Part shown: positions 4,075-44,812 of the stretch, piece by piece
How the letters are laid out: every line of letters begins with the position of its first letter
Numbering within the stretch: position 1 is the stretch's first letter
Source of the DNA: Bacteroidales bacterium
Lineage (GTDB): Bacteria; Bacteroidota; Bacteroidia; Bacteroidales; UBA932
Assembly: GCA_017443465.1 (NCBI GenBank)
Contig: JAFRXO010000072.1
Span: 1 to 58,340, forward strand
Direction of reading: 5' to 3'
Length of the DNA: 58,340 nt
The notes under the pieces: generated by a model
What the model saw: only the letters and a program-made list of their open reading frames with translations
What the model was told of the DNA's origin: nothing
Databases searched by the model: none
Translations under genes and position numbers: made by a program

Positions 4075-4156
4075 TGGTTTGTTAATTAATTATTTATAAG
4101 AACTTCATTAAGGGTGCGCATAACACTGCGTACACCTCCGCGCAAATTGCGGACTG

Positions 4157-4164
4157 CAAAGATA
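4157..4164 (-). promoter_or_regulatory. Promoter -7 element for the rplC-rpsC run
   Basis: Read on the minus strand the element is TATCTTTG, an exact match to the Bacteroidetes -7 consensus TAnnTTTG, 83 bp upstream of the rplC start. The -33 region is T-rich but has no clean TTTG. Its presence implies that the S10 genes start from their own promoter instead of reading through from rpsJ. Confidence 0.6.
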
Positions 4165-4236
4165 GAAATAATTTTGATAAAAATAGTTATACCACCGTTT
4201 TTTTCTTATCTTGGGCGTATAAATAAAACTCGGCAT

Positions 4237-5040
4237 ATGAAAAAATATCTGATTCTGCTCGCTCTCGTTCTCTCGGTAAGCGCGTTCGGAGGCGATAAAA
4301 ATGTCAGGAAAGCGAACTATGCATCCCAAAAGCGGTTCAAGGCCCTCCTTCTGTGGGAGCCCCATGCAGAACGGGACCATGTTGATTTCGACAAGCAGGC
4401 GATGGAATTCTTCCGCAGGCTGAACTGGGGACAGGGATTCCAGCTGGACTCCACCACGACCCTGGACGGGATCCCCCTGGACAGCCTGAAGCAATATAGT
4501 ATAATAGTAGCCCTCAATGCTGCACCTTCCAGCCCCCAGTCGAGGGCCAACTTCGAAAGGTATATGGAAGAAGGGGGCGGATGGATGGGGTTCCACGCTT
4601 CCGCCTACAATGACAGGAGGACCAACTGGCCCTGGTACGTGCAATTCCTCGGCGGCGGAGTGTTCAAATGCAACAACTGGCCTCCGCAGCCGGCCCTTGC
4701 AGTGGTGGACGTCACCAAGCACCCTGTGACCAAGGCGCTTCCAAAGGAGTTCGTGCTCCCCGCAAGCGAATTCTACCAGTGGACTCCGGAACCCCGTGCC
4801 AACAAAGACATACAGGTACTTCTCTCGCTCTCACCCAAGAATTACCCGATAGGTATAAAGGACATCGTGTACGGAGGAGACTGGCCGATAGTGTGGACCA
4901 ACAAGAAGTACAGGATGATCTACCTCAACATGGGCCACGGGAACCAGGAATTCAAAGACGCGGACCAGGACTTGCTCTTTGTCTCGGCATTCCGCTGGAT
5001 AGTTTCCCGCGATCCCTCCGGAAATCCGTTCGACAAATAA
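4237..5040 (+). CDS. Exported ThuA-like domain protein
   Basis: The 267-aa product has a signal peptide (MKKYLILLALVLSVSAFGG) and then a class I glutamine-amidotransferase-like ThuA fold: ALLLWEPHAERDHVDF near residue 33, the GGGWMGFHASAYNDRR nucleophile-elbow region near residue 110 with no catalytic Cys, and the late YLNMGHGNQEF motif. ThuA-type proteins occur with Gfo/Idh oxidoreductases and DUF1080 proteins in sugar loci, but their reaction is poorly defined. The start at 4237 gives a signal peptide and a CATATG start context; an upstream in-frame start at 4114 is possible but unlikely. A partial -7 element (TATCTTGG, 4207-4214) precedes it. It is divergent from rplC and convergent with the next gene, with a 14-bp gap. 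Confidence 0.82.
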   Translation: MKKYLILLALVLSVSAFGGDKNVRKANYASQKRFKALLLWEPHAERDHVDFDKQAMEFFRRLNWGQGFQLDSTTTLDGIPLDSLKQYSIIVALNAAPSSPQSRANFERYMEEGGGWMGFHASAYNDRRTNWPWYVQFLGGGVFKCNNWPPQPALAVVDVTKHPVTKALPKEFVLPASEFYQWTPEPRANKDIQVLLSLSPKNYPIGIKDIVYGGDWPIVWTNKKYRMIYLNMGHGNQEFKDADQDLLFVSAFRWIVSRDPSGNPFDK

Positions 5041-5054
5041 TCCGGTTCCTCTCT

Positions 5055-6128
5055 TTACTTCACGGCTTTAAGCGGAATCTTCGCAAGATAGATGGCCGCA
5101 TCGTTCCTCTTTTCTCCATATGACCGGTAATAGCAGCACCACAGTTCCTTTCCGGCCACGATCATACCGGGGTACGAACTGTCGAGCACCGGTTCGTGAA
5201 GGTCGGCCACCTTCTCGAACGGGCCCTCCAGCGGACCTGCCCATATGGCCGTGAAGCAGCCTCCCTGAACATATTCCCGCCCAGAGAGCACCAGACGGTC
5301 CTTGCCAAGTACCAGCAGTTCCGGACCACCGATCTTGAAGCCTATGTCCGTGTATTTCCAATCCGTGTAGGGTGCGGGAGCGAAAGCCAGAAGACCGTGT
5401 GAAGCGACCCCGTTCCGGTTTCCGTCCTGACGGATCAAGATGACCATCCGGCCGTCCGGCAGGAACCTGACAGTAGCCTCATTGGCATAATCGTCCTCAT
5501 CAAGGTCCAACCCGGACACATAATCATAATGCACCCCGTCCTTTGTCTTCCAGAGGGTAAGCACGGTCTTCGACGGCCCCGTACCGATGTAGCAGACAGT
5601 GTAGCCCGTCCCCTTGTACCATGTCACACGCCAGGGCCACACCTTTCCGTCCAACCCGCTGCCTTCGGAGAACTCGAAAGGCTGAAGCGGGGAGAAATTC
5701 CTGCCGTCCTTACTGAAACACACCTGGGGCTCCATGCCCACCAGCTTCCTGTCTACGTATATGGATCCGCCCATGATGAGCATGAGAGAGCCGTCCGGGG
5801 CGACCGAGAGCTTGGGATCCCTCAGGTCAAAGCCCTCCTTTCCGATCAAAGCCACGGATTTCCAGTCATTTCCGTCTTTCGACGCCAGGATGCGGATCTT
5901 CCCGCGGGCCTCACCGTCCCTGTCGAATATATGTGATTCCGCCTCACGGAAAGTGACATAGTACTCGCCTTTGAACTTCACTATAGAAGTAAATGCGCTG
6001 TGGTTGTCATTGAACCAGATCTGCTCATTGCTTATTGGAGTGACAGGGACCTTTTCACTGCCCCCGCAGGATGAAAGGCATATGACCGCGATCGCGGCCG
6101 AGGCAAAGTAAAACAGGAACTTATTCAT
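5055..6128 (-). CDS. Sialidase-like beta-propeller lipoprotein
   Basis: The 357-aa product has a lipoprotein signal (VICLSSC, lipid-acceptor Cys at about residue 21), so it is probably anchored in the envelope. The body looks like a six-bladed neuraminidase-type propeller. I see Asp-box-like repeats SKDGNDWKSV (near 84), FSKDGRNFSPL (near 140) and TKDGVHYDYV (near 195), and an early FREAESH that may supply a catalytic Arg. The full sialidase Arg triad, Tyr and Glu cannot be assigned by eye, so the substrate is unknown and it may be a related exo-glycosidase. A terminator separates it from the upstream ompA-like gene, so it probably has its own promoter, which I could not place. Confidence 0.7.
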   Translation of the reverse strand: MNKFLFYFASAAIAVICLSSCGGSEKVPVTPISNEQIWFNDNHSAFTSIVKFKGEYYVTFREAESHIFDRDGEARGKIRILASKDGNDWKSVALIGKEGFDLRDPKLSVAPDGSLMLIMGGSIYVDRKLVGMEPQVCFSKDGRNFSPLQPFEFSEGSGLDGKVWPWRVTWYKGTGYTVCYIGTGPSKTVLTLWKTKDGVHYDYVSGLDLDEDDYANEATVRFLPDGRMVILIRQDGNRNGVASHGLLAFAPAPYTDWKYTDIGFKIGGPELLVLGKDRLVLSGREYVQGGCFTAIWAGPLEGPFEKVADLHEPVLDSSYPGMIVAGKELWCCYYRSYGEKRNDAAIYLAKIPLKAVK

Positions 6129-6140
6129 ATGTATTAAAAT

Positions 6141-6174
6141 AAAAACGGAGGCCGGCCATCAACTGCCGACCTCC
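6141..6174 (-). terminator. Intrinsic terminator of the OmpA-like gene
   Basis: A 10-bp stem (147-156 with 165-174 of the 6 kb block, one G-U pair) and an 8-base loop are followed on the minus strand by GTTTTTATTTT. It sits 20 bp past the OmpA-like stop codon and ends 13 bp before the sialidase-like start. Confidence 0.8.
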
Positions 6175-6193
6175 TAAATCAGGTTCAGGTTTA

Positions 6194-6886
6194 TCAGTTT
6201 GCGCCTGCCTCTGCGTTGGCCTCTTTGACCATGTTCTCGTTCGCAGAGATATAAACCTCGACGCGGCGGTTCTGGGCCTTGCCGGCAGCGGTGTCGTTGG
6301 AAGCGACGGGCTCGTTGTAAGACCTTCCCTCAGCAGTCATACGGCTTGAGGCGATTCCGCAGCTCTTGAGATAAGACTCGACTGCGGCAGCCCTCTGGGC
6401 GGAGATGCGCTCATTGACTTCAGCGGTACCGGTATTGTCGGTGTGACCGAAGATGGTGATGTCAGTGTCGGTCATGTCGCTCATCTTCTGGGCGAATTCC
6501 TTGAGCTCGGATTTAGCAGATGAGCTCAGGGTCGTTCCGTTGGTCGGGAAAAGGATTCCGCTGGCGAAGGTGACCTTGATGGCCTTGAGGCCGTTGTTGT
6601 CGGTGACGGTTTCGATCTTGGCATTCTCAAGGGCTGCGAGTTCCTCAGCCTTCTTGTCCATCTTCTTGCCGATTACTGCACCTGTTCCGGCACCTACTGC
6701 TGTACCGATGGCAGCACCGATTGCGGCACCCTTGGCATCCTTACCGATGATAGCACCGAGGATAGCACCTGCGGCTGCACCGGCGCCGGCGCCGATACCA
6801 GTGCCCTTGGCTGTCTGTGAAGCGGTTCCACAGCCGGTCGGGATAAGGGCGATACCGATCATGAGTACAAATAAGAGTTTCTTCAT
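6194..6886 (-). CDS. OmpA-family lipoprotein with glycine zipper
   Basis: The 230-aa product has a lipoprotein signal (ALIPTGC, Cys near residue 19), a glycine-zipper segment of repeated GAxxG units (about 29-75) that can form tight membrane helices, and a C-terminal OmpA-like peptidoglycan-binding domain (about 105-220). The domain shows the motif TDITIFGHTDNTGTAEVNERISAQRAAAVESYL with the conserved Asp/Arg positions, and NRRVEVYI at the end. It likely tethers the outer membrane to peptidoglycan. It stands alone between a promoter element and a terminator. Confidence 0.9.
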   Translation of the reverse strand: MKKLLFVLMIGIALIPTGCGTASQTAKGTGIGAGAGAAAGAILGAIIGKDAKGAAIGAAIGTAVGAGTGAVIGKKMDKKAEELAALENAKIETVTDNNGLKAIKVTFASGILFPTNGTTLSSSAKSELKEFAQKMSDMTDTDITIFGHTDNTGTAEVNERISAQRAAAVESYLKSCGIASSRMTAEGRSYNEPVASNDTAAGKAQNRRVEVYISANENMVKEANAEAGAN

Positions 6887-6928
6887 AATTGTATTTGCAT
6901 TAAATTGAACATATCTTAATTACAACTC

Positions 6929-6936
6929 CAAAGATA
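6929..6936 (-). promoter_or_regulatory. Promoter -7 element for the OmpA-like gene
   Basis: Minus-strand TATCTTTG matches the Bacteroidetes -7 consensus, 43 bp upstream of the OmpA-like start. No clear -33 TTTG is visible. Confidence 0.5.
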
Positions 6937-6956
6937 GTAATTATTTCTGTATTATG

Positions 6957-7517
6957 TCATCCCAGCTGCGCGGCTATGAACCAGCGCTTCAGGTCCGGGC
7001 TCCCGGCCGAGTACTGCCCGACATCAATGGTATCAAGCAGATACAGGTCCTCTCCCTTGAAGAGGGTATCCTTCGCCCCCGCCTCGATCTCATTGATCTT
7101 GTCAATGGTCTCCTTGGGCACTATCAGATGGCAGGGAATAACGAAAGTCACAGGATTCAGGGCGACCGCATGGGCGACAGACCGGACTCCGGGATTTGCG
7201 CATATGGACGCGAAATCGGAATAGCTGTACAGCCCCAGAGGAGGATGGTAATCTCCTTCAGGCCCGTGTACAAGGTCGAACAGCTGTTTCCAGACAGCCT
7301 TCTGGAACTTTGTCCCGAAAAGACGCAGGTCCTCCCAGCGGAGAGTCGTGGCCATCATCAGGAGCTCTTCTGTCTTGATGCGCCCGCTGTGGATCTCCGA
7401 CGGAGCCGAAGATGCAGGCATACCCGCCACTTCGCGGGCAATGTCGGCAAACGCCTTGAAATCCCGCGTAATCGCGGCGATCTTACCATCTACATATGTT
7501 ACAATCCATTCGTCCAT
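6957..7517 (-). CDS. MGMT-like protein with PCHL in place of PCHR
   Basis: The 186-aa product resembles O6-alkylguanine-DNA alkyltransferase: KFQKAVWKQLFDL (FQ..VW motif), a helix-turn-helix region with VRSVAHAVALNPV, and VIPCHLIVPKE with the alkyl-acceptor Cys. In the family the motif is nearly always PCHR-[VI]; here the Arg is Leu. I chose the start at 7517 (MDEWIVTYVDG) because a paralog at 53.8 kb begins the same way (MEQNLQWIVTRVDG). It follows the S9 peptidase gene by 17 bp and is the last gene of the operon that starts at 16463. Repair activity is not assured; it may be a regulatory or divergent form. Confidence 0.75.
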   Translation of the reverse strand: MDEWIVTYVDGKIAAITRDFKAFADIAREVAGMPASSAPSEIHSGRIKTEELLMMATTLRWEDLRLFGTKFQKAVWKQLFDLVHGPEGDYHPPLGLYSYSDFASICANPGVRSVAHAVALNPVTFVIPCHLIVPKETIDKINEIEAGAKDTLFKGEDLYLLDTIDVGQYSAGSPDLKRWFIAAQLG

Positions 7518-7534
7518 GGCCCTAAGGATTACTT

Positions 7535-10033
7535 TCAATCATTGTTCAGTTCTGCGATGTCCACAGGCCTCGGGGTCCTGTCACCCATCAGCCACTGGGT
7601 GTAGAAATCGGCCATCTCCCAGAAGAAATACTCGTTAAGGTCGGCGTAACCGTGCCTCTGCCCAGGGATCAGAGAGAAAGAGAAGCGCTTGTTGGCCCTC
7701 ATGAGGGCATTGACCACCCGGATAGTGTTGGAAGGATGTACATTGTTGTCAATGTCTCCCGTAACCAGCAGCAGGTGTCCCTTCAGGTTCTTGGCAAGAT
7801 CCTGGTTCTTCTCGATATGGTACACGAATGTAGTGTCCCCGTCCACTATCTTCTCCTGGATGCCGTGGTGCTGTTCGCTCCACCAGCGGTTGTAGATGGA
7901 GTTGTCGTGATTGCCCGAACACGAGACGGCCACCTTGAAGAAATCGGGATAGGTAAGGATGGCTGCGGTGGACATGAAACCTCCTCCGGAATGGCCGTGT
8001 ATGCCGACACGGGACTCATCCATCCAGGGATACCTGGCGCAAAGTTGCTGGAGCGCGTATTTCTGGTCCTCGAGACCGTAATCGCGCAGATTGCCGTAGC
8101 CGAAATTGTGGTACCACTTGGAACGGTCGGGATGCCCTCCCCTGTTGCCTACCGTTATGACTATGAAGCCAAGCTGGGCCAGCCTGTCGACGCGGGTGAA
8201 GTTCCTGCTCCACGAGATATTGTTGGCCTCGACCTGGGGCCCGGGATAGACATAGTCGCAGACCGGATAGACCTTGGTGGAATCGAAATCGAAAGGCTTG
8301 TAGATCGCTCCGTAAAGATCGGTGATCCCGTCGGCGGCCTTTACGCTGAACCTCTCGGGGAATTTGTAGCCTGCGGCCAAAAGCTGTGAGAAATCCGATT
8401 CCTCCAGGTCCATGACCTTCCGCCCGGCCCCGGAATAGAGAGCCGAAGCCGGTTTGTAGTCCACCCGGGAATAATTGGCTACGAACCACTTGCCGCTGTA
8501 GCTGCTCCTGGCGTCCACATCCATGTCAGGCATATCCAGCTGTTTCGGGGCCCCTCCTGAGAGCCCGACGCGGAATGTATGGGCCTGATAAGGATTCTCT
8601 CCCTTGTTGAAACCGCATATGCTTACAATAAGTCCTCCGCCGGCCTCGTCCACTCCCCTGACATCCTCAACGTGCCATGCACCTTCGGTGAGGTTGCGGA
8701 TAAGCTTGCCTTCAGAATCGTAGAGGTAGAGATTCGCCCAGCCGTTACGCTCCGACCAATGCACTATCTGGCTTCCGTTCTTCAGCAGGACCGGATTGCG
8801 GTACTCGACATATGTGTTCGAACGCTCCGAGATCACAGTCTTTGTAGAGTCAGAGGAAATATCCACCCGGCACATGTCATACCTCTTGAGGTCACGGCTG
8901 ATACGGCCAAGATAGAAGCAGCCGTCATCCCCCAGCCATTTTCCGTTACGGAAGTCCTTGTAAGCATCCTCGGCAGTAGGACGTGCCGGATATATGTCCA
9001 TCTCCTGCTCCTTGAAAGCGGTGGTCTTTATATGCTTGTACTGTCCCGAAGGCATTTCAAAGACATAGAGGTAACCTGTTGCGCCTTTCTCTCCGGGCAT
9101 CTGGTACTTGTAGGTCTCCAGTGTGGGACGGGGATTGCTCAGGGCGTTGATCACCCAGAAGTCCTTGATTGCGGACATGTCCCATTTGATGGTGGCGAAA
9201 TGCCTGGAATCCGGAGCCCAGCGCAAACTGGAGGGATAAACCCTCTTGGTCGAATCCGTAGTGGTGTTCCCGTGATAATTCTCGACTCCCCAGCTGAAGT
9301 CATGGGTTCCGTCCCGGGTCAGGCGGGTCTCCACTATGGTGGAGTCCTTGGGATTCTTCGCTGCCTTGCGGAGGGAAGTGGAATCCATGTACCACAGATC
9401 ATTGTTCTTCATGTAGATACCGACTTTCCCGTCCGGCGAGACAACGGCCCAATCGGGATATTTCCTGGGCTGTTCGGGAATCTGGGTAAGCTCCTTGCTC
9501 CCTATGTCATAGCGGAAGTGGAAGACTTTCTTGCGCATCTTGGGCTCCTTCCCTTTGCCGTCCTTCGAGGTCTCGGCATCGGGGTCGGGCTCATCCGCAG
9601 TGCTCCTGATGTCGAAGGTGAAGTATTTGTCCTCCTTGAGTTTCAGGTTAGAGAAGGGAATATGCTGGGCATCGAAAGGATCGCGGACGATTTCCGTCAG
9701 CTGCATGGCAAGTTTCTCAAGGTCGAATACCTCTTCCTTCTTTCCGGTAGAAGGATCGACCATATAATAAACCGTCCCCGCCGATGTTTTCCAATCGTAC
9801 CAGAACTTGTCAGAATCCTTGAACCACCTGGGGGTCACTGCGGTGGAGTAGACCATCTGCCCCACTTTCTTGGCGGAGAACCTGGCAGCCTGGGCGTAGT
9901 CTGCCTTCGTAACCTTCTCGGGGCGGGCCCGGAAGGCCACGGGCGGCTGCGCACCGGCCGGAACGAAGGCGAGAGCCAGCACCGCTGATATGATTATCTT
10001 TTTATTCAGCATATAGCGAAACAATTGTTTCAT
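7535..10033 (-). CDS. S9 family dipeptidyl peptidase (DPP IV type), exported
   Basis: An exported serine peptidase with a DPP IV N-terminal propeller (from about residue 80 to 520) and a C-terminal alpha/beta-hydrolase domain. The nucleophile elbow is GIHGHSGGGF (Ser near 682), with the acid in TGDIDNNVHP (near 760) and the His in PGQRHGYAD (near 794). The probable start at 10033 (MKQLFRYMLNKK) has AGGA a few bases upstream; an internal start at 10012 would also give a signal peptide (KKIIISAVLALAFVPAGAQ). Either start overlaps the 3' end of xylA. The peptidase likely trims peptides in the periplasm. A close paralog, with the same downstream partner type, lies at 55.2-57.6 kb. Confidence 0.9.
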   Translation of the reverse strand: MKQLFRYMLNKKIIISAVLALAFVPAGAQPPVAFRARPEKVTKADYAQAARFSAKKVGQMVYSTAVTPRWFKDSDKFWYDWKTSAGTVYYMVDPSTGKKEEVFDLEKLAMQLTEIVRDPFDAQHIPFSNLKLKEDKYFTFDIRSTADEPDPDAETSKDGKGKEPKMRKKVFHFRYDIGSKELTQIPEQPRKYPDWAVVSPDGKVGIYMKNNDLWYMDSTSLRKAAKNPKDSTIVETRLTRDGTHDFSWGVENYHGNTTTDSTKRVYPSSLRWAPDSRHFATIKWDMSAIKDFWVINALSNPRPTLETYKYQMPGEKGATGYLYVFEMPSGQYKHIKTTAFKEQEMDIYPARPTAEDAYKDFRNGKWLGDDGCFYLGRISRDLKRYDMCRVDISSDSTKTVISERSNTYVEYRNPVLLKNGSQIVHWSERNGWANLYLYDSEGKLIRNLTEGAWHVEDVRGVDEAGGGLIVSICGFNKGENPYQAHTFRVGLSGGAPKQLDMPDMDVDARSSYSGKWFVANYSRVDYKPASALYSGAGRKVMDLEESDFSQLLAAGYKFPERFSVKAADGITDLYGAIYKPFDFDSTKVYPVCDYVYPGPQVEANNISWSRNFTRVDRLAQLGFIVITVGNRGGHPDRSKWYHNFGYGNLRDYGLEDQKYALQQLCARYPWMDESRVGIHGHSGGGFMSTAAILTYPDFFKVAVSCSGNHDNSIYNRWWSEQHHGIQEKIVDGDTTFVYHIEKNQDLAKNLKGHLLLVTGDIDNNVHPSNTIRVVNALMRANKRFSFSLIPGQRHGYADLNEYFFWEMADFYTQWLMGDRTPRPVDIAELNND

Positions 10034-11321: not shown

Positions 11322-11324
11322 GAT

Positions 11325-12797: not shown

Positions 12798-12803
12798 ATG
12801 AAC

Positions 12804-16463: not shown

Positions 16464-16485
16464 ATCGCGTTATAATTATGCTTTT

Positions 16486-16519
16486 CAAATATAACAAATA
16501 AAGACTATTTTTACACAAA
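16486..16519 (-). promoter_or_regulatory. Promoter of the 16.5-7.0 kb operon
   Basis: On the minus strand TTTG (516-519 of the 16 kb block) and TATATTTG (486-493) are separated by 22 bp, matching the Bacteroidetes -33/-7 pattern. It sits in the 65-bp gap between divergent genes. The plus strand has only a weak candidate for the acyltransferase (TATTTTTA). Confidence 0.7.
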
Positions 16520-16528
16520 CGAATACAT

Positions 16529-17632: not shown

Positions 17633-17696
17633 TTCCCATATACCTTTAATTAATAAGGGCCTGGCCAAAAAAAACTTCAAATTTTTTCAAAAAAAG

Positions 17697-17727
17697 TTTG
17701 GAGATTAAAAATATAGTCTTACCTTTG
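17697..17727 (+). promoter_or_regulatory. Promoter of the GntR/ABC/GIN operon
   Basis: TTTG (697-700 of the 17 kb block) and TACCTTTG (720-727) are separated by exactly 19 bp, one of the best matches to the Bacteroidetes consensus in the window. The transcription start would fall inside the inverted repeat that begins at the next base. Confidence 0.75.
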
Positions 17728-31436: not shown

Positions 31437-31447
31437 ATGTTTCCTGA

Positions 31448-32770: not shown

Positions 32771-32789
32771 TGTGGTTTTTGGTCTGATA

Positions 32790-32797
32790 CAAATGTA
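32790..32797 (-). promoter_or_regulatory. Promoter -7 element for the CE15-like gene
   Basis: Minus-strand TACATTTG matches TAnnTTTG 20 bp upstream of the start at 32770. It lies 10 bp from the opposing plus-strand element, so the two divergent promoters overlap. No clear -33 element. Confidence 0.5.
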
Positions 32798-32807
32798 AGT
32801 ATTTTTT

Positions 32808-32815
32808 TATCTTTG
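32808..32815 (+). promoter_or_regulatory. Promoter -7 element for the MFS transporter gene
   Basis: TATCTTTG matches the Bacteroidetes -7 consensus exactly, 21 bp upstream of the start at 32837. A TTTG at 32778-32781 is too far upstream (26 bp) to be a standard -33 element. Confidence 0.55.
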
Positions 32816-32836
32816 TGGATAAGTAAAAACAACCAT

Positions 32837-34231: not shown

Positions 34232-34236
34232 CAGTT

Positions 34237-35367: not shown

Positions 35368-35380
35368 TAATTTCATTTTT

Positions 35381-38300: not shown

Positions 38301-38917
38301 AAAGTATTCACATCCAGGCCTCTCTTCCGGACTGGCAGGTCGACGCTGTCAACACGACTTCAAGGGATATCAAGAATGTGTCTCTTACAGCGGCCATATA
38401 TGACATCACAGGCAAGGAGTATTGGCGTCACTCTGTCTCCGGTGTCAGCGTTCCTGCGTCAGGCGTTGTCAAATCTTTCAATGTAGAATTTGCAGATAAT
38501 CTTCCAGCCTTGACATTTGTCAAGCTTACAATGAAAGACAAGAAGGGAAACATCCTCTCGGATAACTTCTACTGGCACACAGAACGGTCTGAAGATCTGT
38601 CCGTTCTTAACGACCACAAAGATGTAACCCTTGACGCCAATGTCACATCAGAAGAAAAAAACGACTCAAGGTACTATCATCTGAATATCTGCAACACTTC
38701 CGGAATCGTTGCCGCCATGCTGAGAGTCTCCCTGAAAGACGCAGAAACCGGAGACAGGATTCTTCCTGTTTACTACTCTGATAACTTCATATGGTTGCTG
38801 CCTGGAGAAAAACGCGAAATCATCCTGGATTGCAAGGTCAAGGAAGTCAAGGGAAAGGTACCACAAATCGTCCTGTCAGGATATAATACAAAGGATAAGG
38901 TTATTCCCGCTAATTAA
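35381..38917 (+). CDS. GH2 glycosidase with two discoidin-like domains
   Basis: A 1178-aa exported enzyme (signal MKKLLISLACTLSMMVVSSSLC). Residues ~26-188 form an F5/8 type C (discoidin) domain. GH2 sugar-binding and Ig-like domains follow at ~225-545. The GH2 barrel starts with VIYVNGVRVFCKGGNWG near 685. Between the Ig domain and the barrel a second discoidin-like module (~550-680, with WYSEGDKDEWAMVDLGEEKTFDYVV) is inserted. Catalytic acid/base is Glu792 in WCASNETYP, and the nucleophile is Glu850 in FRTEIGLP. The layout is closest to exo-beta-glucosaminidase/mannosidase GH2s. The start is 13 bp after the GDPD gene; codon use is more AT-rich than the neighbours on either side. Confidence 0.88.
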   Translation: MKKLLISLACTLSMMVVSSSLCPAQIINLASDRPVRVSSTDHAATQAEFAVDGESITGWRSRYYVDYSKQAEPEITLPQWLCVDLQGKCTISKIRLFCEADANTPKYVHDRRFTVGYEIYSSYPTSFSIQVSDNGIAWRTVRKVEDYKGGWCEYDLPSVSCRQVRIFINGSSTNLPVAINEIQVLGTCEGQRPETTGWKTRRKPKTSASSSALTARSGSVLPIMSGWEMVCEAFNDTSDGAVISSPSYDSHSWYDATVPGSVVATLVEQEVFPDPVSGLNNLHIPDALCRYNWWMRRTFRLPAEFQVKGKRVLLEADKINHHADFWVNGHKVGNIDYCFVQGSFDVTDYINVDGENVVAVRLSPMELVGVPGDKSEEGTGWVNSRIITKASPTYICSSGWDWMPATRDRATGILEEVRLRTVGEVRISHPQIVTDLHLPDTSKAYVSINIPLKNTSAARQNVTVSAAFSRVSVSENVTLDPGDSTVISFGPDKYRQLVVKNPKLWWPNGYGSPNLYDLKITASSGKEESDRYECKFGIRKVTYNIPLFRPRRGADYIEKTNARYVRIYMDSTTTDRFGMMDFSVYNSQDFDTDLAAWQPAEASSARAGSPTTHLTDVRGVSKWYSEGDKDEWAMVDLGEEKTFDYVVAGWDAFGLAAKYKIQVSNDKQTWKTVRECIQKTPEQLVIYVNGVRVFCKGGNWGFEELAMRMPRERMETAIRFHADSKMNMIRTWMGNFFDDAFFELCDQYGIMVFSDLWGGMPADMYRYCEIARDNIIRFRNHPSIALWCASNETYPAIYIDDSIMKAVKEYDPQRLYVSHSADDVVVGGDGVYFWVDPVHYYEMAHGFRTEIGLPTFPVYETALNTFGQDVSWPMGDAWYYHDYCNMKSLSGYIHQINTPLGEAKSLKDYCEKAQFVNYENMRAIFESSNHNMWEDCSAQLLWMTHPAWYSTLWQTYDYDFDVNGSWAGAKKGCESIHIQASLPDWQVDAVNTTSRDIKNVSLTAAIYDITGKEYWRHSVSGVSVPASGVVKSFNVEFADNLPALTFVKLTMKDKKGNILSDNFYWHTERSEDLSVLNDHKDVTLDANVTSEEKNDSRYYHLNICNTSGIVAAMLRVSLKDAETGDRILPVYYSDNFIWLLPGEKREIILDCKVKEVKGKVPQIVLSGYNTKDKVIPAN

Positions 38918-38933
38918 TAATCATAAATAGAGT

Positions 38934-41465
38934 ATGCCGTCACTCCAATCAAGGATTGGGACTAGTTGCCTGTATCTATTTACTGCAGCCTTAGTATTGT
39001 CTGCCTGTTCTGCAAAAGTAACCGAACGTGCAGGTGAATACCTGTTGTCCAATGCTAAACAATTAAAATACTTCGCGGAACACTACGGAGATGATCTTCC
39101 TCTCCAAGGCACATATGTCCTTGCCAAAGATATAGATATGTCCAAAGCAGGAGAGTATGTCCCCTCAAGAAATAACTTCATAGGCCATTTTGATGGCAAA
39201 GGACATGTCATCAGCCATCTGACCATTCGACTCCCCGATGAAGAGGGCATCGGTTTTTTCCGGTCAATCGGAGATGGCTCGCACCAGGCAGTTGTCAAGA
39301 ATCTGGCTTTGACTGATATACACGTACTCGGAAAAAACACAGTCGGTTCTCTGGCGGGGATGCTATACGGGACAGTTAAAAACTGCTTCCTGGACGGAGA
39401 AATCCATGCAATGCTCCACTGCGCAGGAGGCATTGTCGGCCGTATGCCGGAAATTATCAATCAGAATGTCATTCCGACGATGACAGACTGCTATAGCGAT
39501 GTTGCCGTGATATGCGACGGTGAGGCAGATAGCCAAGGAGGGCTTGCCGGGCGTACAATGGCTCCGGGAAGCAACATATCCAACTGCATATGCACCGGCG
39601 AAGTAATAGGTCACAGCAAAACCGGCGGTTTGGTTGGATACATGTGGACAAACACATCCTTGAAATCTTGCCTGTCGCTTAACAAGATCATCAAGGCATC
39701 GCCCGGAACAAAGCAGACCGGAGAATTTGTCGGCCAGATGGACATTGGAGCCGAGAATGAAAACAATATCGGATGGGATATGCCATTCCGCTCGAAAAAA
39801 ACCTTTGAACAGAGGGGATGGCAGTTTTCACAGGCATGGGAATGGGTAGGATCCAATGGAAACGGATATCCGCGCCTTCGCTTATTCCCCGGGCTGGAAA
39901 AGAAATCCTATGAGAATTGGAACAATATGCCATATATGGATGTAGCCGGATATCCCGAAAACGACAGAATCACTGTCACAATAAAAAACCGGAAGCCTGG
40001 CAATCAGTATTGTGTCACTCTTTTAGACAGGAATCTTCCAGCAAAATGCGACTGGCATGATAAAGACTCTTTTTGCTTTGCAGGGCTTAGCTCAGGCAAA
40101 GTATATAGATTTGCTGTACGATGCCGTGACGCGAATGGAAATGTTAGCGGATGGTATCGCATGACCTTCAACACAAGCTATACCTATGTGGCAGACAAGA
40201 CCCCGGTTGACATTGCCTGCGTGGTCTCAGAGGATCCTGCCTCTTGCTTTAATTTCTCCTGGACGACCTTGGACACAACTGTAACCAGCCCCGCCGTATG
40301 GATAGCAAAAGCGACAGATTCATCTGCACTGATGGAGCATCCGGTATCCGCTGTTACTCATGTCATGCAGGTGAGAAACACAGTCAACAAGAAATTGTTT
40401 GACGGGATATGTGCATTCCATTCCGCAAGTGTGGCCGGTCTGGAACCTGCGACCGCCTACTGCTATGTGGTCGGAGACAAAGACAGCGGCATGATCAGCC
40501 CTATGCGATATGTCACCACCGCTTCCCTTGACTCAGATGAGTTGTCATTCGCCTATGTCACAGACATTCAGATCGGAAGCGAGAAGGCAGAAAAGCAGAT
40601 AGAGCGGGTGTATGAAAACATTGTTGAAAAATGCGGAGGCATGCCTGATTTCATCTACAATGCCGGAGATATGACAGAGAATGGTTATAACTATTCTCAA
40701 TGGCACAGTTACTTCAAAGCCGGATCAGCAGTCCTGTCACAAGTGTTCATTGTGCCTGCACAGGGTAATCATGACACGGATCAGGACATGTGCAATCATT
40801 TCCAAGTAAAGTCAATGGTAGACGATATCCCTTTTGTTTACTCATTTGACTACGGATGCGTACATTTTGTTGTCCTAAACACACAATATTGGGAGCAACC
40901 TTATCTTACCAGGCAGTTGGCCTGGGCTGAAAAAGACATCAGGCAGAATCGCCGCAGATGGAATGTCCTGATGCTGCACAGAGCTATTTATGCTGCCACG
41001 GATCATGTGGATGACAGAGACATTGACGCCCTGAGACAGAATCTCTCTCCTTTTATTGAGAGAATGTCCATAGACGTAGTCCTTATGGGACACGACCACA
41101 GTTTTTCGAGAGGATTCATAAGAAACGGGCAGAATGCCAGATGCCCGTTTTCATCTGATGGATACCGCCAGATATTCAACAGTCCGTCAGCACCATTGTA
41201 TATAGTCAATGGGACTGCCGGCGTCGCTAAGTGGTACCATAAAATCAAGTACGATCCCACTAAGCTGCATCGTGTAAGTGAAAACTATGATTTCATAGAC
41301 AAGACATCAGCAGACTATACCACCACCAAACACGAACAGAGTTTCTCGACAGTTCACTTCGATTACGAATCGATGTCCATCGACACATGGTCCTTCAAAT
41401 GTACTGCTGACGGAGAATATGAAATCGACCCGTATTTGTTTGACTCTATTACAATTAAGAAATGA
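38934..41465 (+). CDS. Beta-helix plus purple-acid-phosphatase-like phosphoesterase
   Basis: An 843-aa exported protein (lipoprotein-like VLSACSAK near 25). Residues ~35-330 form a GLUG-type repeat region (FIGHFDGKGHVI, GFFRSIGD, VGSLAGMLYG, GGIVGRM, GGLAGRTM, GGLVGYMW, GEFVGQMD), the turn pattern of a beta-helix. FN3-like strands follow (~340-530), then a metallophosphoesterase domain: AYVTDIQIGSE (near 540, Gln where His is usual), YNAGDMTENG, VPAQGNHDTD, LMLHRAIYA and VLMGHDHSFSRG (near 720). This is the layout of a purple acid phosphatase-type enzyme with a large adhesive front end. It overlaps the next gene by 4 bp. Confidence 0.82.
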   Translation: MPSLQSRIGTSCLYLFTAALVLSACSAKVTERAGEYLLSNAKQLKYFAEHYGDDLPLQGTYVLAKDIDMSKAGEYVPSRNNFIGHFDGKGHVISHLTIRLPDEEGIGFFRSIGDGSHQAVVKNLALTDIHVLGKNTVGSLAGMLYGTVKNCFLDGEIHAMLHCAGGIVGRMPEIINQNVIPTMTDCYSDVAVICDGEADSQGGLAGRTMAPGSNISNCICTGEVIGHSKTGGLVGYMWTNTSLKSCLSLNKIIKASPGTKQTGEFVGQMDIGAENENNIGWDMPFRSKKTFEQRGWQFSQAWEWVGSNGNGYPRLRLFPGLEKKSYENWNNMPYMDVAGYPENDRITVTIKNRKPGNQYCVTLLDRNLPAKCDWHDKDSFCFAGLSSGKVYRFAVRCRDANGNVSGWYRMTFNTSYTYVADKTPVDIACVVSEDPASCFNFSWTTLDTTVTSPAVWIAKATDSSALMEHPVSAVTHVMQVRNTVNKKLFDGICAFHSASVAGLEPATAYCYVVGDKDSGMISPMRYVTTASLDSDELSFAYVTDIQIGSEKAEKQIERVYENIVEKCGGMPDFIYNAGDMTENGYNYSQWHSYFKAGSAVLSQVFIVPAQGNHDTDQDMCNHFQVKSMVDDIPFVYSFDYGCVHFVVLNTQYWEQPYLTRQLAWAEKDIRQNRRRWNVLMLHRAIYAATDHVDDRDIDALRQNLSPFIERMSIDVVLMGHDHSFSRGFIRNGQNARCPFSSDGYRQIFNSPSAPLYIVNGTAGVAKWYHKIKYDPTKLHRVSENYDFIDKTSADYTTTKHEQSFSTVHFDYESMSIDTWSFKCTADGEYEIDPYLFDSITIKK

Positions 41466-42562
41466 CTACATTGAGAAGGATGATCTTGGTCATCGCATCA
41501 TCAGTTTCTCTTCTATACCTATGCGCTCTGCACATTCTCCCGGAAAAGCCGGAACAAGTAACCGGCATCTGGTCATCAAGGGCAGAACTGGCACTGCTTC
41601 CCATGAGCGGACCAGCCTGGGAAGCGGTGTACAACGATGCACAGCAAGACACCTCACATCCCGACGTAGGCAACCAGAATGACAACACCAATTGCTTTGT
41701 CCTTGCTGCTGCGATTGTCAGTGAAAGACTGCTAGCAGCCGGAGATGTCGAGCATGCACAGGAATTCCGACAAAAAGTCATATGCGCCATCGAGACAATT
41801 GTCAGGACCGGGCAGCCTGCCGGCTCCCGTTCCCTTGCATGGGGGAGGGAAATCGGAGCATATGCGATGGCTGCAGACCTCATAGGATATCGCACATCAG
41901 AGTTTGAGCAGTACCTGAAAAACGCTGCCGATAATTGGAAGTGCTCAGCACGAAATCAGACCCTTCATGAAATGACGCTGACAAGGCCAAACAATTGGGG
42001 AAGCATGGGCTTTGGAACCATGTGTGCCATCTACGCATACCTTGACGACACAGCAGCCCTGGCTTCACTTAGAAAAACATGGATCTCGACTATCAACGGC
42101 CCGAGTGCTGAATCCTTCAAATATGGAGATGACCTGTCATGGCAGGCTGATCCTCAGAAACCGATGAACATTAATCCAGCCAGAACGGCCAAGGACGGTT
42201 TATCTCTTGATGGACTCCAACCGGAAGAAATGCGCAGGGGAGCCTCCTTCAAGGCCTCCGATATAACCCCAACAGGATACCCATTTGAAGCTCTTCAGGG
42301 GTGGATCATGGCGGCACGTATCCTGGAACGCCGGGGAATGCCCATATGGCAAGAGGGAGACAAAGCCCTTTATCGTGCTGTCTATGCCCTCGAAAAGTAT
42401 CTTACAGAAAAAGAAGGTGAAGCATGGTCATTTTCTGGAGATGACCTGTGGATACTTGAGTTTATTGACCGTGCCTATGGGAGTACTTTCGCAAAAGGCA
42501 AGGACGTATGGGGCCATGGGAAAAATGCCGGATATCCATATGTAGCACAGCTTGCTGATTAA
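41462..42562 (+). CDS. Alginate-lyase-like alpha/alpha-toroid protein, exported
   Basis: The 366-aa product has an N-terminal membrane or signal segment (MILVIASSVSLLYLCALHIL) and helices typical of the alginate_lyase fold: QNDNTNCFVLAAAIVSERLLAAGD, GREIGAYAMAADLIGY, and TRPNNWGSMGFGTMCAIYAYLDD near residue 175, which resembles the family NN[HW]G active-site loop, then GLSLDGLQPEEMRRGASFKASDITPTGYPFEALQ with Arg and Tyr candidates. It likely cleaves an acidic polysaccharide by beta-elimination. Family assignment is tentative. It is the last gene of the three-gene cassette, and its stop lies next to the phosphodiesterase remnant. Confidence 0.6.
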   Translation: MTTLRRMILVIASSVSLLYLCALHILPEKPEQVTGIWSSRAELALLPMSGPAWEAVYNDAQQDTSHPDVGNQNDNTNCFVLAAAIVSERLLAAGDVEHAQEFRQKVICAIETIVRTGQPAGSRSLAWGREIGAYAMAADLIGYRTSEFEQYLKNAADNWKCSARNQTLHEMTLTRPNNWGSMGFGTMCAIYAYLDDTAALASLRKTWISTINGPSAESFKYGDDLSWQADPQKPMNINPARTAKDGLSLDGLQPEEMRRGASFKASDITPTGYPFEALQGWIMAARILERRGMPIWQEGDKALYRAVYALEKYLTEKEGEAWSFSGDDLWILEFIDRAYGSTFAKGKDVWGHGKNAGYPYVAQLAD

Positions 42563-42563
42563 A

Positions 42564-42737
42564 ACGGCTATAAAAGCCGTCGCAAACGGATTCGAGACGG
42601 AGTCCAACACGGACAACTTTCCGCGCATGGACATAATCAACAAGGCCCACGTCGATTACATAAGCAACGCCCTGTCATTCTCTTTTAACAACCGGCGGCA
42701 TTTTGCGTCTTATGAGTGCAGCCGGTTGATTATTTGA
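42564..42737 (+). pseudogene. 3' remnant of a second glycerophosphodiesterase gene
   Basis: The frame reads KAVANGFETESNTDNFPRMD, then INKAHVDYIS, almost identical to residues ~235-266 of the GDPD at 34237, and then diverges into FNNRRHFASYECSRLII before a stop. The DNA similarity covers about 100 bp (42573-42673 against 34933-35033) with scattered, mostly silent differences, so this is a diverged paralog and not a recent copy. No GDPD active site remains and there is no start. The alginate-lyase-like gene ends exactly at its left edge. Confidence 0.75.
42690..42727 (+). terminator. Hairpin after the phosphodiesterase remnant
   Basis: AACCGGC (690-696) pairs with GCCGGTT (721-727), with three further inner pairs. 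The following bases are only moderately T-rich (GATTATTTG). It may end the 32.8-42.6 kb plus-strand transcription 12 bp before the DUF4252 start. Confidence 0.4.
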
Positions 42738-42738
42738 T

Positions 42739-43233
42739 ATGAAAAAGATACTGATTACCCTCCTGATGCTCCTGAGCCTCGGCACCGCCGTCCGGGCCGG
42801 AGACCAAAACTCGCAACTGAGAAGTCTGGTTTCCTCCTACAAGGGAACCGAAGGATTCGAAATCGTCGATATCGGCAGTATAGGCCTGGGCTTGCTGAAG
42901 GCAGCCGCCAAGACCGCCGCCGAAACCCCGGAGGACCGGGCCGCCCTGGAACTGTTCAAAGGCCTCAAGCGACTCACCATCGTGGACTTTTCCGACGCCG
43001 CCCCCGAAGCGCGGGAAAAATTCCTTCGCAAGGCGGACCGGATCCTCAAAGGGGGAGAGATGCTCATGGAAGCCAAGGACAGCGGCGAAACGGTCCGCAT
43101 CTATGGTACTTCCTCGGCCGACGATACCCTGCTTGAAGACATCGCCCTCCTCGCCGAAGACACACTCATCTTCCTCCGCGGGACCATCCGGACCGACCAG
43201 GTCGAAGCCCTGATGAAGCAAGCCGACAAATGA
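42739..43233 (+). CDS. DUF4252 exported protein, first copy
   Basis: The 164-aa product has a signal peptide (MKKILITLLMLLSLGTAVRAG) and the DUF4252 pattern: SSYKGTEGFEIVDIGSIGLGLLKAAAK, LKRLTIVDFSDAAPEAREKFLRKADRILKGGEMLMEAKDSGETVRIYG near 85-125, and a final LIFLRGTIRTDQVEALM. The family has no proven function; it is found with ECF sigma operons in Bacteroidetes. The stop overlaps the sigma gene start by 4 bp. Codon use is strongly G/C-ending. Confidence 0.85.
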   Translation: MKKILITLLMLLSLGTAVRAGDQNSQLRSLVSSYKGTEGFEIVDIGSIGLGLLKAAAKTAAETPEDRAALELFKGLKRLTIVDFSDAAPEAREKFLRKADRILKGGEMLMEAKDSGETVRIYGTSSADDTLLEDIALLAEDTLIFLRGTIRTDQVEALMKQADK

Positions 43234-43709
43234 CCGACGCCCGGTTCCATACCGTCTGGATTCCGTTGCAGGACCGTTTCTACCGGGTGGCCTTCTACTT
43301 GCTGGAAGACCGGGCCGATGCCCTGGACGCCGTACAGGACCTGTACGTGAAGCTCTGGAAAATGCGCGACAACCTGGACCTCGTCCGGAACCCGGGAGCC
43401 TACGGCGCCCTGCTCATGCGGAACCTCTGCATCGACCGGATCCGCCGGCTCTCTCCCAGCGAGGAACTGTCCGACGACCTCCCAGGACGTGAACCGCCCG
43501 ACGAGGAACTCATCCGGAAAGAAAGCCTCGGACAGTTGCTACGGTCCATGGAAACCCTCCCCGAAAGCCAGCGCAAACTGCTGGGCCTCCACGTCCTCCA
43601 AGGAAAGTCCTACGAAGAAATCGCCGCCGAGACCGGCCTCTCCCCCTTAAACGTCCGTGTCCAGGTCAGCCTGGCCCGCAAAAAATTGAAACGCCATGAA
43701 GAACATTGA
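43230..43709 (+). CDS. ECF-type RNA polymerase sigma factor
   Basis: A 159-aa sigma-70 family protein with region 2 (FYRVAFYLLEDRADALDAVQDLYVKLWKMRDNLDLVRNPGAYGALLMRNLCIDRIRR, residues ~17-72) and region 4 (LPESQRKLLGLHVLQGKSYEEIAAETGLSPLNVRVQVSLARKKLKR, ~108-155). No region 3, as in ECF sigmas. It overlaps DUF4252 upstream (4 bp) and the membrane protein downstream (14 bp). The downstream protein is the likely anti-sigma factor; no promoter for its own regulon was recognised. Confidence 0.93.
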   Translation: MTDARFHTVWIPLQDRFYRVAFYLLEDRADALDAVQDLYVKLWKMRDNLDLVRNPGAYGALLMRNLCIDRIRRLSPSEELSDDLPGREPPDEELIRKESLGQLLRSMETLPESQRKLLGLHVLQGKSYEEIAAETGLSPLNVRVQVSLARKKLKRHEEH

Positions 43710-44043
43710 TGAAATCACCCGGCTCACCGCCGACGATCTGGAGCGGATCTCGCTCGACAAAAGCATTCCCGTACCGGAGGAACTCTCCGGGAAGGTGCAG
43801 CAGGCGGTCCGGGGCAGGACGCTCCGCTGGGCCGTTCCGACAAGCGTCGCCGCCGCCATCGCCATCCTTCTCGCCGCGGGCCTGACCAGGAATCCCGAAC
43901 CCAAGGACACCTTCGACGATCCCTATCTCGCTTATGCCGAGGTGGAGAAAGTCTTCTCCAAGATTTCCGGCACCGTCGCCTATGGTGCTGACAAAATATC
44001 CGAATCAGAAGCAACCCTTGATAAATACAGTTATTGGAAATGA
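43696..44043 (+). CDS. Small membrane protein, putative anti-sigma factor
   Basis: A 115-aa protein with one transmembrane segment (LRWAVPTSVAAAIAILLAAGL, residues ~44-64), a ~43-residue cytoplasmic N-terminal part (MKNIDEITRLTADDLERISLDKSIPVPEELSGKV) and a short periplasmic tail. It has no conserved zinc-binding His-Cys motif of ZAS anti-sigmas. Its place directly after an ECF sigma, overlapping by 14 bp, is the only support for an anti-sigma role. It overlaps the next gene as ATGA. Confidence 0.65.
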   Translation: MKNIDEITRLTADDLERISLDKSIPVPEELSGKVQQAVRGRTLRWAVPTSVAAAIAILLAAGLTRNPEPKDTFDDPYLAYAEVEKVFSKISGTVAYGADKISESEATLDKYSYWK

Positions 44044-44525
44044 AAAGAATATATGCCCTCCTGGTGATGCTCGCCGTCAGCATCACCGCCTTCGCCCAGA
44101 ACGGGCGCTCCCTGTACAATAAATATTCCGACTACGACAACGTCGAAGCCGTGTACATCTCCCCAGCGATGTTCCGCCTGATAGGCAAGATTCCCGATAT
44201 GGAACTCCAGGAAGGAAACGTAAACCTGGGCCCGGTCATCAAGTCTCTCACCGGCCTGTACATCCTGTCCACCACCCGCGAGGACATCGCCGCGGACCTG
44301 GCAGCAGACGTGAACCATTTCATCAAGCGGGGCAGCTACGAGCTGCTGATGGAGGCCAAGGACAACGGAGAAGTGATGCGGCTGTACACCGTGGGTGACG
44401 AACAGATTGTCAACAGTCTCGTGATGCTGGCCCGTGACGCCGCCGAAACCAGCTTCATCTGCCTGGACGGCACCATGCCCCGTGACGAGCTCGAGACTCT
44501 CATCGCGGAAGCAGCTGAACGATAA
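44040..44525 (+). CDS. DUF4252 exported protein, second copy
   Basis: The 161-aa product has a signal peptide (MKRIYALLVMLAVSITAFAQ) and the same DUF4252 pattern as the copy at 42739: DYDNVEAVYISPAMFRLIG, TGLYILSTTREDIAADLAADVNHFIKRGSYELLMEAKDNGEVMRLYTVGDEQIVNSLVMLARD, and SFICLDGTMPRDELETLI. Sequence identity between the copies is low outside the shared core. The start at 44040 overlaps the upstream stop (ATGA). A strong bidirectional terminator follows. Confidence 0.85.
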   Translation: MKRIYALLVMLAVSITAFAQNGRSLYNKYSDYDNVEAVYISPAMFRLIGKIPDMELQEGNVNLGPVIKSLTGLYILSTTREDIAADLAADVNHFIKRGSYELLMEAKDNGEVMRLYTVGDEQIVNSLVMLARDAAETSFICLDGTMPRDELETLIAEAAER

Positions 44526-44601
44526 GCTTTTATAATTGAAAGCACGACCCCCATGAAATAGCCTACCCACGGGGGTCGAGCATCAAGGAATGCCGAACAG
44601 C

Positions 44602-44650
44602 AAAAAAGAGATGACCTCAAGTCGACTGGACTTAAGGTCATTCTCTTTTT
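44602..44650. terminator. Bidirectional terminator between DUF4252 and tRNA-Met
   Basis: A long hairpin: AAAAAGAG and the bases after it (603-617 of the 44 kb block) pair with 635-650 apart from one bulged T, and an inner 5-bp stem closes a 5-base loop. A-run on one side and T-run on the other allow it to end transcription of both the plus-strand DUF4252 operon and the minus-strand tRNA. Confidence 0.85.
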
Positions 44651-44653
44651 CCG

Positions 44654-44727
44654 TGGTCCCAGCAGGGCATGATCCTGCGACCCCCTGATTATGAGTCAGA
44701 TGCTCTAACCAACTGAGCTATGGGACC
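44654..44727 (-). tRNA. tRNA with CAU anticodon (Met, or Ile if lysidine-modified)
   Basis: The minus strand folds as a cloverleaf: acceptor stem GGTCCCA with TGGGACC, D arm GCTCAGTTGGTTAGAGC, anticodon arm CTGA-CTCATAA-TCAG with anticodon CAT, T arm with GATCATGCC. The 3' CCA is not encoded (ACG follows). The first pair is G-C, so it is not the initiator type. It lies 85 bp downstream of rpsJ on the same strand, at the edge of the region that separates rpsJ from rplC. Confidence 0.9.
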
Positions 44728-44812
44728 GTACTGGAAGCCAGGCTTCCAGGTGAATTACTCAGGAGACAACCGCACTGGCGACAATCTCCGATGCAAATAT
44801 ACTGAATTTCCG

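What the first reader, a model, noticed from the sequence alone, without database searches (positions are those of the whole stretch)
4075..44812. The str-S10 ribosomal superoperon is split by 40 kb between rpsJ and rplC
Seen: rpsL-rpsG-fusA-rpsJ (48.2-44.8 kb) and rplC-rplD-rplW-rplB-rpsS-rplV-rpsC (4.1-0.1 kb) are on the same strand in the right relative order, but carbohydrate, transport and sigma-factor genes lie between rpsJ and rplC. Known: rpsJ and rplC are adjacent in most bacteria, including most Bacteroidetes. A tRNA and a bidirectional terminator seal the rpsJ side, and a TATCTTTG promoter element serves rplC, so both halves look adapted to the split. fusA carries the same CATATG-rich style as the 4-42 kb region, which argues against a simple chimera. 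A misassembly remains the main alternative.
Basis: partly seen in the sequence, partly recalled or inferred. Interest (0 to 1): 0.75.

Follow-up and report, generated by a model that had tools for sequence, protein, structure and literature searches.

The report
Ribosomal superoperon broken into pieces
In a large group of animal-gut bacteria, the long and usually unbroken row of genes for ribosome parts has come apart into separate pieces that each seem to have their own switch, and the same weak point has given way again in some related bacteria.

Summary
In detail: rpsL-rpsG-fusA-rpsJ and rplC...rpsC sit on one strand, 40.7 kb apart. The break is not an assembly accident. The two genes are apart in 46 of 46 genus genomes (own included) and 41 of 48 sampled genomes from other genera of the family, three of these on a single contig; they are adjacent in the other 7 and in 44 of 45 genomes of other families of the order. 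A tree puts the split family members in one clade (support 0.995). That clade also lacks the rpsC-rplP junction, leaving three units. rplC has a Bacteroidota-type -7 box in 48 of 50 split loci and 0 of 20 intact ones, mostly followed by a hairpin at the predicted mRNA start. A tRNA-Met follows rpsJ in 42 of 51 split loci. The rpsJ|rplC seam opened elsewhere too (7 of 131 other phylum genomes; named Sphingobacteriaceae). Caution: composition and a second rpsL-rpsG suggest that this contig may be chimeric right of about 42.7 kb, so the 40-kb spacing is uncertain although the split is not. New variant of a known kind.

The parts
147..4074 (-). rplC-rplD-rplW-rplB-rpsS-rplV-rpsC, the middle ribosomal block, now a separate unit
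   Evidence: Pfam matches; contig starts just beyond rpsC
4157..4164 (-). -7 box TATCTTTG of the presumed rplC promoter
   Evidence: a TAnnTTTG box within 170 nt in 48 of 50 split loci and 0 of 20 intact loci
4137..4153 (-). hairpin TCCGC...GCGGA at the predicted 5' end of the rplC mRNA
   Evidence: 65 of 74 distinct split leaders against 23.1% of shuffles
4075..44610 (.). unrelated genes between the two halves: polysaccharide-degrading enzymes, an ABC transporter ATPase, an ECF sigma factor, DUF4252 genes
   Evidence: gap 40,741 nt
44611..44641 (-). terminator-like stem with T run after the tRNA, A run on the other side
   Evidence: 1 found, mean 1.1 in shuffles
44653..44727 (-). tRNA-Met (CAT) directly after rpsJ
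   Evidence: found after rpsJ in 42 of 51 split loci
44794..44801 (-). TATATTTG box between rpsJ and the tRNA, a possible promoter of the tRNA
   Evidence: a box in this interval in 18 of 42 loci
44813..45118 (-). rpsJ (S10), last protein gene of the str unit
   Evidence: Pfam
45155..48195 (-). fusA, rpsG, rpsL
   Evidence: Pfam
48228..48254 (-). rpsL promoter box TAAATTTG (48247-48254) and 5' hairpin TCCCT...GGGGA (48228-48243)
   Evidence: 5' hairpin in 15 of 18 distinct split rpsL leaders

Best explanation
In one ancestor of most sampled genera of this Bacteroidales family (UBA932, judging by its named member Candidatus Minthomonas equi), the ribosomal superoperon came apart at two seams, rpsJ|rplC and rpsC|rplP. 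It became three transcription units: rpsL-rpsG-fusA-rpsJ (usually with tRNA-Met behind it), rplC...rpsC, and rplP...rplQ. Shown here: the gene orders, the single origin on a tree, the promoter-like box at rplC, the 5' hairpin, and the tRNA. Inferred: rplC and rplP are transcribed from these boxes. A shared class of promoters (TAnnTTTGCRRYCC), also found at tRNA, rRNA and other ribosomal-protein units, now keeps the pieces in step where one long transcript once did. Once each piece had its own promoter, selection to keep them side by side was relaxed, so their spacing and orientation drift between species. The 40 kb here is one such outcome, or an assembly join. The 5' hairpin most likely protects or tunes the mRNA by its shape, because its sequence varies while its pairing is kept.
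For: Adjacent in 0 of 46 genus genomes with both genes (own included), in 7 of 48 genomes from 22 other genera of the family (the 7 make up 6 genera, the 41 split ones 16), and in 44 of 45 genomes of other families of the order. Three one-contig genomes are split (G122, G129, G196). Split members form one clade of 46 leaves, support 0.995, and the 7 intact family loci fall outside it. rplP does not follow rpsC in 20 of 20 split family loci or in 25 of 25 loci of named relatives with 1.4-6.9 kb held downstream, but follows it in 7 of 7 intact family loci and 12 of 12 testable loci of other families. The box is in 48 of 50 split rplC loci and 0 of 20 intact ones. The hairpin is in 65 of 74 distinct leaders, with varied pairs. 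The motif TAnnTTTGCRRYCC occurs 35 times in this genome against 3 for the reversed control, and 23 against 1 in G129; many of the 58 places lie before ribosomal-protein, tRNA or rRNA genes.
Against: No transcription data: promoters and mRNA 5' ends are predicted. Two genus loci lack an exact box (L014, L022). Nine of 74 leaders lack a simple 5' hairpin, several of them (L004-L007 type) folding differently. tRNA-Met is missing after rpsJ in 8 loci, and one more is cut off by a contig end; G132, the first branch of the split clade, is among the 8, so the tRNA may have come later. The two breaks cannot be ordered in time: no family genome with only one of them was seen. 65 of the 87 split pairs lie on different contigs, so only their separation from the neighbour, not their distance, is known. 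Two of the 46 tree leaves counted as split (L098, L101) hold almost no sequence upstream of rplC and are so labelled by the rpsC|rplP break alone.
Confidence: 0.85

Rival explanations
1. This contig is a chimera: the left part (0 to about 42.7 kb) and the right part (with rpsJ, or only from about 48.2 kb) come from two related species, so the 40-kb in-order spacing is an assembly product while the split of each species is real.
For: 71 CATATG left of 42.55 kb against 4 right of it; 1 in 48.2-58.3 kb where 16.9 are expected (P 8e-7). GC is mostly 60-65% right of 48.5 kb. The tetranucleotide profile of 48.3-58.3 kb correlates 0.62-0.75 with five of six stretches of other genus members, 0.28-0.56 with the left segments. 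A second rpsL with the start of rpsG sits at the end of contig C47 in CATATG-rich DNA, 85% identical to the window's over 757 nt.
Against: A 103-bp repeat, 34935-35037 and 42572-42674, 89% identical, carries left-type sequence past the CATATG step. fusA has 3 CATATG, more than any other str operon held (at most 2). Only one fusA and one rpsJ are in the bin. 42.6-48.2 kb also correlates 0.63 with one left segment, the sixth other-species stretch (G288) only 0.21-0.29 with the right part, and differences in GC may drive part of the correlations.
Confidence: 0.45
2. Misassembly alone makes the split; the real genomes have the joined superoperon.
For: The window is a metagenome contig and estimated contamination is 2.94%.
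Against: 46 of 46 genus genomes and 41 of 48 other family genomes are split, three of them single contigs; shared box at rplC and tRNA at rpsJ.
Confidence: 0.02
3. A 40-kb island was inserted between rpsJ and rplC in this species only.
For: A smaller low-GC stretch at about 35.0-42.6 kb is flanked by a 103-bp repeat.
Against: The split is clade-wide. Of the window's gap genes only one had a match among the 8-kb neighbourhoods compared, so the gap is filled differently in relatives.
Confidence: 0.03
4. The split was ancestral in the family and some genera rejoined the pieces.
For: None found.
Against: The intact genera branch first and 44 of 45 genomes of other families are intact; rejoining in exact order at two seams is unlikely.
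Confidence: 0.02

Closest known systems
Separation of str and S10 operons in Gammaproteobacteria (event P38; Brandis 2021, PMC8046335, section 17 and passages read)
   Same: The str and S10 parts of the same gene cluster become unlinked after an event in one ancestor, and in many descendants they are then more than 10 kb apart; the author also suggests relaxed selection.
   Different: [quoted passage not shown] Here rpsJ stays with str and the break lies behind it, a second break lies inside the S10 operon, and a box with a 5' hairpin is seen before rplC.
Cyanobacterial and plastid order with rpsL-rpsG-fusA-tuf-rpsJ apart from rplC onward (recalled, not tested here)
   Same: The same seam, rpsJ|rplC, if recalled correctly.
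   Different: Distant phylum; no second break at rpsC|rplP recalled.
Sphingobacteriaceae (Mucilaginibacter, Pedobacter, Sphingobacterium), found here
   Same: rpsJ and rplC apart by 2.2-9.0 kb in 14 loci where both are held; -7 box before rplC in 31 of 31 loci with this leader type; 5' hairpin in 25 of 28 distinct leaders.
   Different: rpsC and rplP stay joined where both are held; no tRNA within 1.5 kb after rpsJ in 14 named and 3 family-f49 loci scanned; a further conserved RNA element lies in the leader.

Membership tests
Bacterial str-S10-spc-alpha ribosomal superoperon | rpsL, rpsG, fusA, rpsJ in this order | tested here: met
   Pfam
Bacterial str-S10-spc-alpha ribosomal superoperon | rpsJ directly followed by rplC | tested here: not met
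   gap 40,741 nt; adjacent in 0 of 46 genus genomes
Bacterial str-S10-spc-alpha ribosomal superoperon | rpsC directly followed by rplP | tested here: not met
   the window ends after rpsC, but rplP is on contig C34 behind an unrelated gene; relatives
Known str|S10 operon separation as in Gammaproteobacteria | unlinking traced to one ancestor and followed by variable spacing | tested here: met
   tree; spacings
Known str|S10 operon separation as in Gammaproteobacteria | break located before rpsJ (position by recall) | tested here: not met
   break is after rpsJ
Autoregulatory ribosomal leader RNA (r-leader) | conserved structured 5' leader | tested here: met
   5' hairpin in 65 of 74 distinct split leaders against 23.1% of shuffles
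Autoregulatory ribosomal leader RNA (r-leader) | match to a described r-leader family | tested here: not met
   no Rfam match in window 3900-4400 up to E=5, and only tRNAs in 9 loci at gathering score
Autoregulatory ribosomal leader RNA (r-leader) | binding of a ribosomal protein that represses the operon | not testable with these tools
   needs an experiment; variable stem and loop sequence speak against a sequence-specific site

The most novel reading that the evidence does not exclude
The rpsJ|rplC seam is a repeatedly used unzipping point of the ribosomal superoperon across Bacteroidota. Each time, rplC gains its own promoter box, and in two distant clades also a hairpin at the very 5' end of the mRNA. 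Coordination by co-transcription is thus replaced, convergently, by coordination through a common promoter and 5'-end class.
Probability: 0.4. Interest if true: 0.65.

Novelty: new variant of a known kind. Interest (0 to 1): 0.5.

Why it matters
The superoperon is among the best conserved gene orders in bacteria, and why it stays together is still a question. Here is a well-sampled clade in which it came apart at two places, with intact near relatives and several parallel cases. What must change when co-transcription is lost can therefore be read from sequence and tested. It also warns that adjacency of ribosomal genes should not be assumed when binning or quality-checking genomes of these gut bacteria.

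Tried and rejected
Misassembly as the cause of the split: rejected from relatives and one-contig genomes. A promoter that came before the split: not seen. The 7 intact family loci have a longer rpsJ-rplC spacer (102-131 nt in 6 of 7; 1 of 44 gaps in other families of the order reaches 100) but no TAnnTTTG box; elsewhere in the phylum adjacent gaps above 100 nt are common, up to 696, so a long spacer alone means little. Small-gap species (G058, G065, G008; 5.5-7.7 kb) as the ancestral state: rejected, they are nested deep inside the genus, and several genes in their gap are frequent rplC neighbours of named relatives. Inversion around the replication origin as the reason for head-to-head arrangements: no clear change of GC skew across the gap in G196 or G129. 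A conserved operon downstream of rpsJ-tRNA: no gene found only there was shared by more than two of the loci compared. Nearest relatives to decide on a chimera: all about 75-80% identical, no decision. The DUF4252 module of 42.7-44.5 kb has relatives at 73-79% identity whose alignments to the window stop before rpsJ; in the five of the eight nearest for which rpsJ was also placed, rpsJ is on another contig. Pfam for the gene remnant at 42.6 kb: nothing. Rfam for rplC leaders: nothing. Ten paper searches, on operon order, leaders and this genus, listed no paper that I could recognise as describing this split in Bacteroidota; I saw listings, plus passages of PMC7247131, PMC8957277, PMC8046335 (with section 17) and PMC1924603. 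The library holds open-licence PMC papers only.
Full report
What was checked. The window is the complete contig C39 of a 2.65-Mb metagenome assembly (81 contigs, 96.4% complete, 2.9% contamination). Pfam confirms rplC...rpsC at 147-4074 and rpsL-rpsG-fusA-rpsJ at 44813-48195, all on the minus strand, with 40,741 nt between rpsJ and rplC. Each of rplC and rpsJ occurs once in the assembly. Named near relatives are Bacteroidales MAGs, many from ruminant and horse samples, among them Candidatus Minthomonas equi, whose genus PMC8957277 (passages read) places in family UBA932. That the window's genus is Cryptobacteroides is recalled, not tested.

Is the split real? Yes. Among 120 genomes, the own one included (counts), 46 of the genus hold both genes: 0 are adjacent, 9 have both on one contig but apart or turned, and 37 have them on different contigs. 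I then took 52 genomes picked for spread over genera and for contiguity. Of the 48 family genomes with both genes, 41 (16 genera) are split, 13 on one contig and 28 on two, and 7 (6 genera) are adjacent with gaps of 53-131 nt. The other four dropped out: G073 and G080 belong to other families, G131 lacks rpsJ and G144 lacks rplC. Of 45 genomes from other families of the order, 44 are adjacent with gaps of 13-101 nt. Three one-contig genomes are split head to head: G122 (399 kb apart), G129 (58 kb) and G196 (31 kb). Misassembly cannot explain this.

When did it happen? A tree of seven ribosomal proteins (1,232 columns) puts all 46 leaves labelled split, the window included, in one clade with support 0.995, while the seven intact family loci branch before it. 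Two leaves, L098 and L101, have almost no sequence upstream of rplC and carry the label because rplP does not follow rpsC. So the split most likely arose once in this family. Spacing and orientation then varied: in order at 5.5, 6.8, 7.7, 40.7 and 121 kb, head to head at 30-400 kb, tail to tail at 36 kb, or in reversed order.

A second break. A search for the promoter motif led to a rplP gene with its own box in this genome and in G129. On contig C34 the block rplP...rplQ is complete (genes named by recall from their translations) and follows an unrelated gene. rplP does not follow rpsC within the sequence held (1.4-6.9 kb) in 20 of 20 split family loci and 25 of 25 loci of named relatives (L061-L103); 2 of the 27 such loci that hold rpsC had under 0.4 kb and were dropped, and 16 do not hold rpsC. 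In intact loci it follows in 7 of 7 family cases and 12 of 12 testable cases from other families, one having no room. So the clade has three units where relatives have one.

What sits at the broken ends. Upstream of rplC, 48 of 50 split loci (window, L003-L031, L161-L180) have a TAnnTTTG box within 170 nt; L014 and L022 do not. None of the 7 intact family and 13 intact order loci has one. That TAnnTTTG is the Bacteroidota -7 box is recalled. Three bases further a hairpin begins, about where transcription should start. From 93 loci, 74 distinct leaders could be taken; 65 fold so, against 23.1% of dinucleotide shuffles, mean z -2.34. Pair types change together, for example G-C to C-G and T-A at the fourth position; these pairs were read from the folds themselves, so the shuffles are the fair control. 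The rpsL leaders of the split clade show the same (15 of 18, shuffles 21.8%); those of intact relatives do so less (2 of 5 and 2 of 13). The motif TAnnTTTGCRRYCC occurs 35 times in this genome against 3 for the reversed control, and 23 against 1 in G129. Genes behind it include rplM, rpsF, rpsU, rplS, rplP, rpsT, rpmE and rplU, tRNAs and probable rRNA operons; not every one of the 58 places lies before such a gene (names from the translations and sequence, by recall).

The rpsJ end. A tRNA-Met follows rpsJ in 42 of 51 split loci; one more is cut off inside the tRNA and 8 have other sequence, several with a terminator-like stem to the eye. G132, the first branch of the split clade, has none, so the tRNA may have come after the break. 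In 18 of the 42 a box lies between rpsJ and the tRNA.

Parallel cases. In a phylum sample (completeness 90% or more; 137 genomes besides the own one), 131 hold both genes: 123 are adjacent (gap up to 696 nt), 7 are split (four of family f49, two of f51, one of f56), and G418 is probably a contig break. Named Mucilaginibacter, Pedobacter and Sphingobacterium loci and some MAGs lack rpsJ next to rplC too: 14 loci with both genes have gaps of 2.2-9.0 kb. That f49 is Sphingobacteriaceae is inferred from its like leader. All 31 loci with this leader type have a box. In that set 25 of 28 distinct leaders, one of them (L113) a near relative of the window, have a 5' hairpin; shuffles reach 28% and the mean z is only -0.72, so the energy there is not unusual. 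The rplC loci of f51 (two) and f56 (one) and two of the four of f49 were read and have a box; G483 and G502 of f49 were not read upstream of rplC. G073 of the order has a tRNA-Ala after rpsJ and no rplC in the 8.1 kb held behind rpsJ; its rplC starts at a contig edge, so its promoter could not be read.

How it most likely works. Co-transcription has been replaced by separate promoters of one class. This is inferred: no transcript was measured. The 5' hairpin varies in sequence but keeps its pairing, so a role through shape, such as protection of the mRNA end, is more likely than a protein-specific site. Once each piece had its own promoter, distance was free to drift, as PMC8046335 (section 17 read) suggests for Gammaproteobacteria, where bfd-bfr came to lie between str and S10. 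Table 1 of PMC7247131 (passages read) lists Bacteroidia leaders for L13 and S4, and the only rplC-first leader in the part I saw is archaeal.

Doubt about this contig. CATATG occurs 71 times left of 42.55 kb and 4 times right of it; 48.2-58.3 kb has 1 where 16.9 are expected. The tetranucleotide profile of 48.3-58.3 kb resembles five of six stretches of other genus members more than the left segments; for 42.6-48.2 kb the picture is less clear, and GC may drive part of it. A second rpsL with the start of rpsG lies at the end of contig C47 in CATATG-rich DNA. Against a chimera: a 103-bp repeat continues left-type sequence to about 42.67 kb, fusA carries 3 CATATG, and there is only one fusA and one rpsJ. 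I put a chimera at about 45%. Either way both halves carry the marks of the split clade.

Novelty. Separation of str from S10 is known in other phyla. I found no account of the Bacteroidota cases, the seam behind rpsJ used several times, the second break inside the S10 operon, or the box with 5' hairpin that goes with it, in ten searches of an open-licence library, of which I saw the listings and passages of four papers.

Noticed in passing
window 1-42543; L256 (contig C34); L266 (contig C47): CATATG is about ten times commoner (1.3-1.7 per kb) than in loci of named near relatives (0.14 per kb, at most 0.49), with no wider shared context: a species-specific over-represented palindrome.
   Followed up: partly
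window 42.5-58.3 kb: Break in composition: CATATG almost absent, GC mostly 60-65% right of 48.5 kb, tetranucleotide profile nearer to other species; possible chimera or foreign segment.
   Followed up: partly
L266 / G000 contig C47 end (102.3-103.0 kb): A second rpsL with the start of rpsG, 85% identical to the window's, behind a cdaA, mutS2, yraN, manC cluster (names by recall); related genes lie upstream of rplC in many named relatives.
   Followed up: partly
L106-L140, L104, L115 upstream of rplC: Sphingobacteriaceae-type rplC leaders carry a conserved two-stem RNA element (CTTGAACGAAGC...GCTTCGATGG); in 12 leaders 4 of 11 pairs show changes on both sides. It is also present between rpsJ and rplC in two intact genomes. 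No Rfam match at gathering score in the four such loci scanned.
   Followed up: partly
window 34935-35037 and 42572-42674: A 103-bp direct repeat (89%) flanks a low-GC stretch with GH2, phosphatase and alginate-lyase-like genes, like the edges of an inserted island.
   Followed up: partly
window 7.5-33 kb: Two alpha-L-fucosidase-like genes, a rhamnosidase-like gene, a glucuronyl-esterase-like gene and sugar oxidoreductases suggest a polysaccharide-degradation region.
   Followed up: no
window 42739-44525: Two DUF4252 genes enclose an ECF sigma factor and a small gene, on the strand opposite to rpsJ; 174 of 300 genus genomes have a relative of the second DUF4252 gene.
   Followed up: partly
L271 (G073): In another family of the order, rpsJ is directly followed by a tRNA-Ala, a parallel to the tRNA-Met here.
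   Followed up: partly
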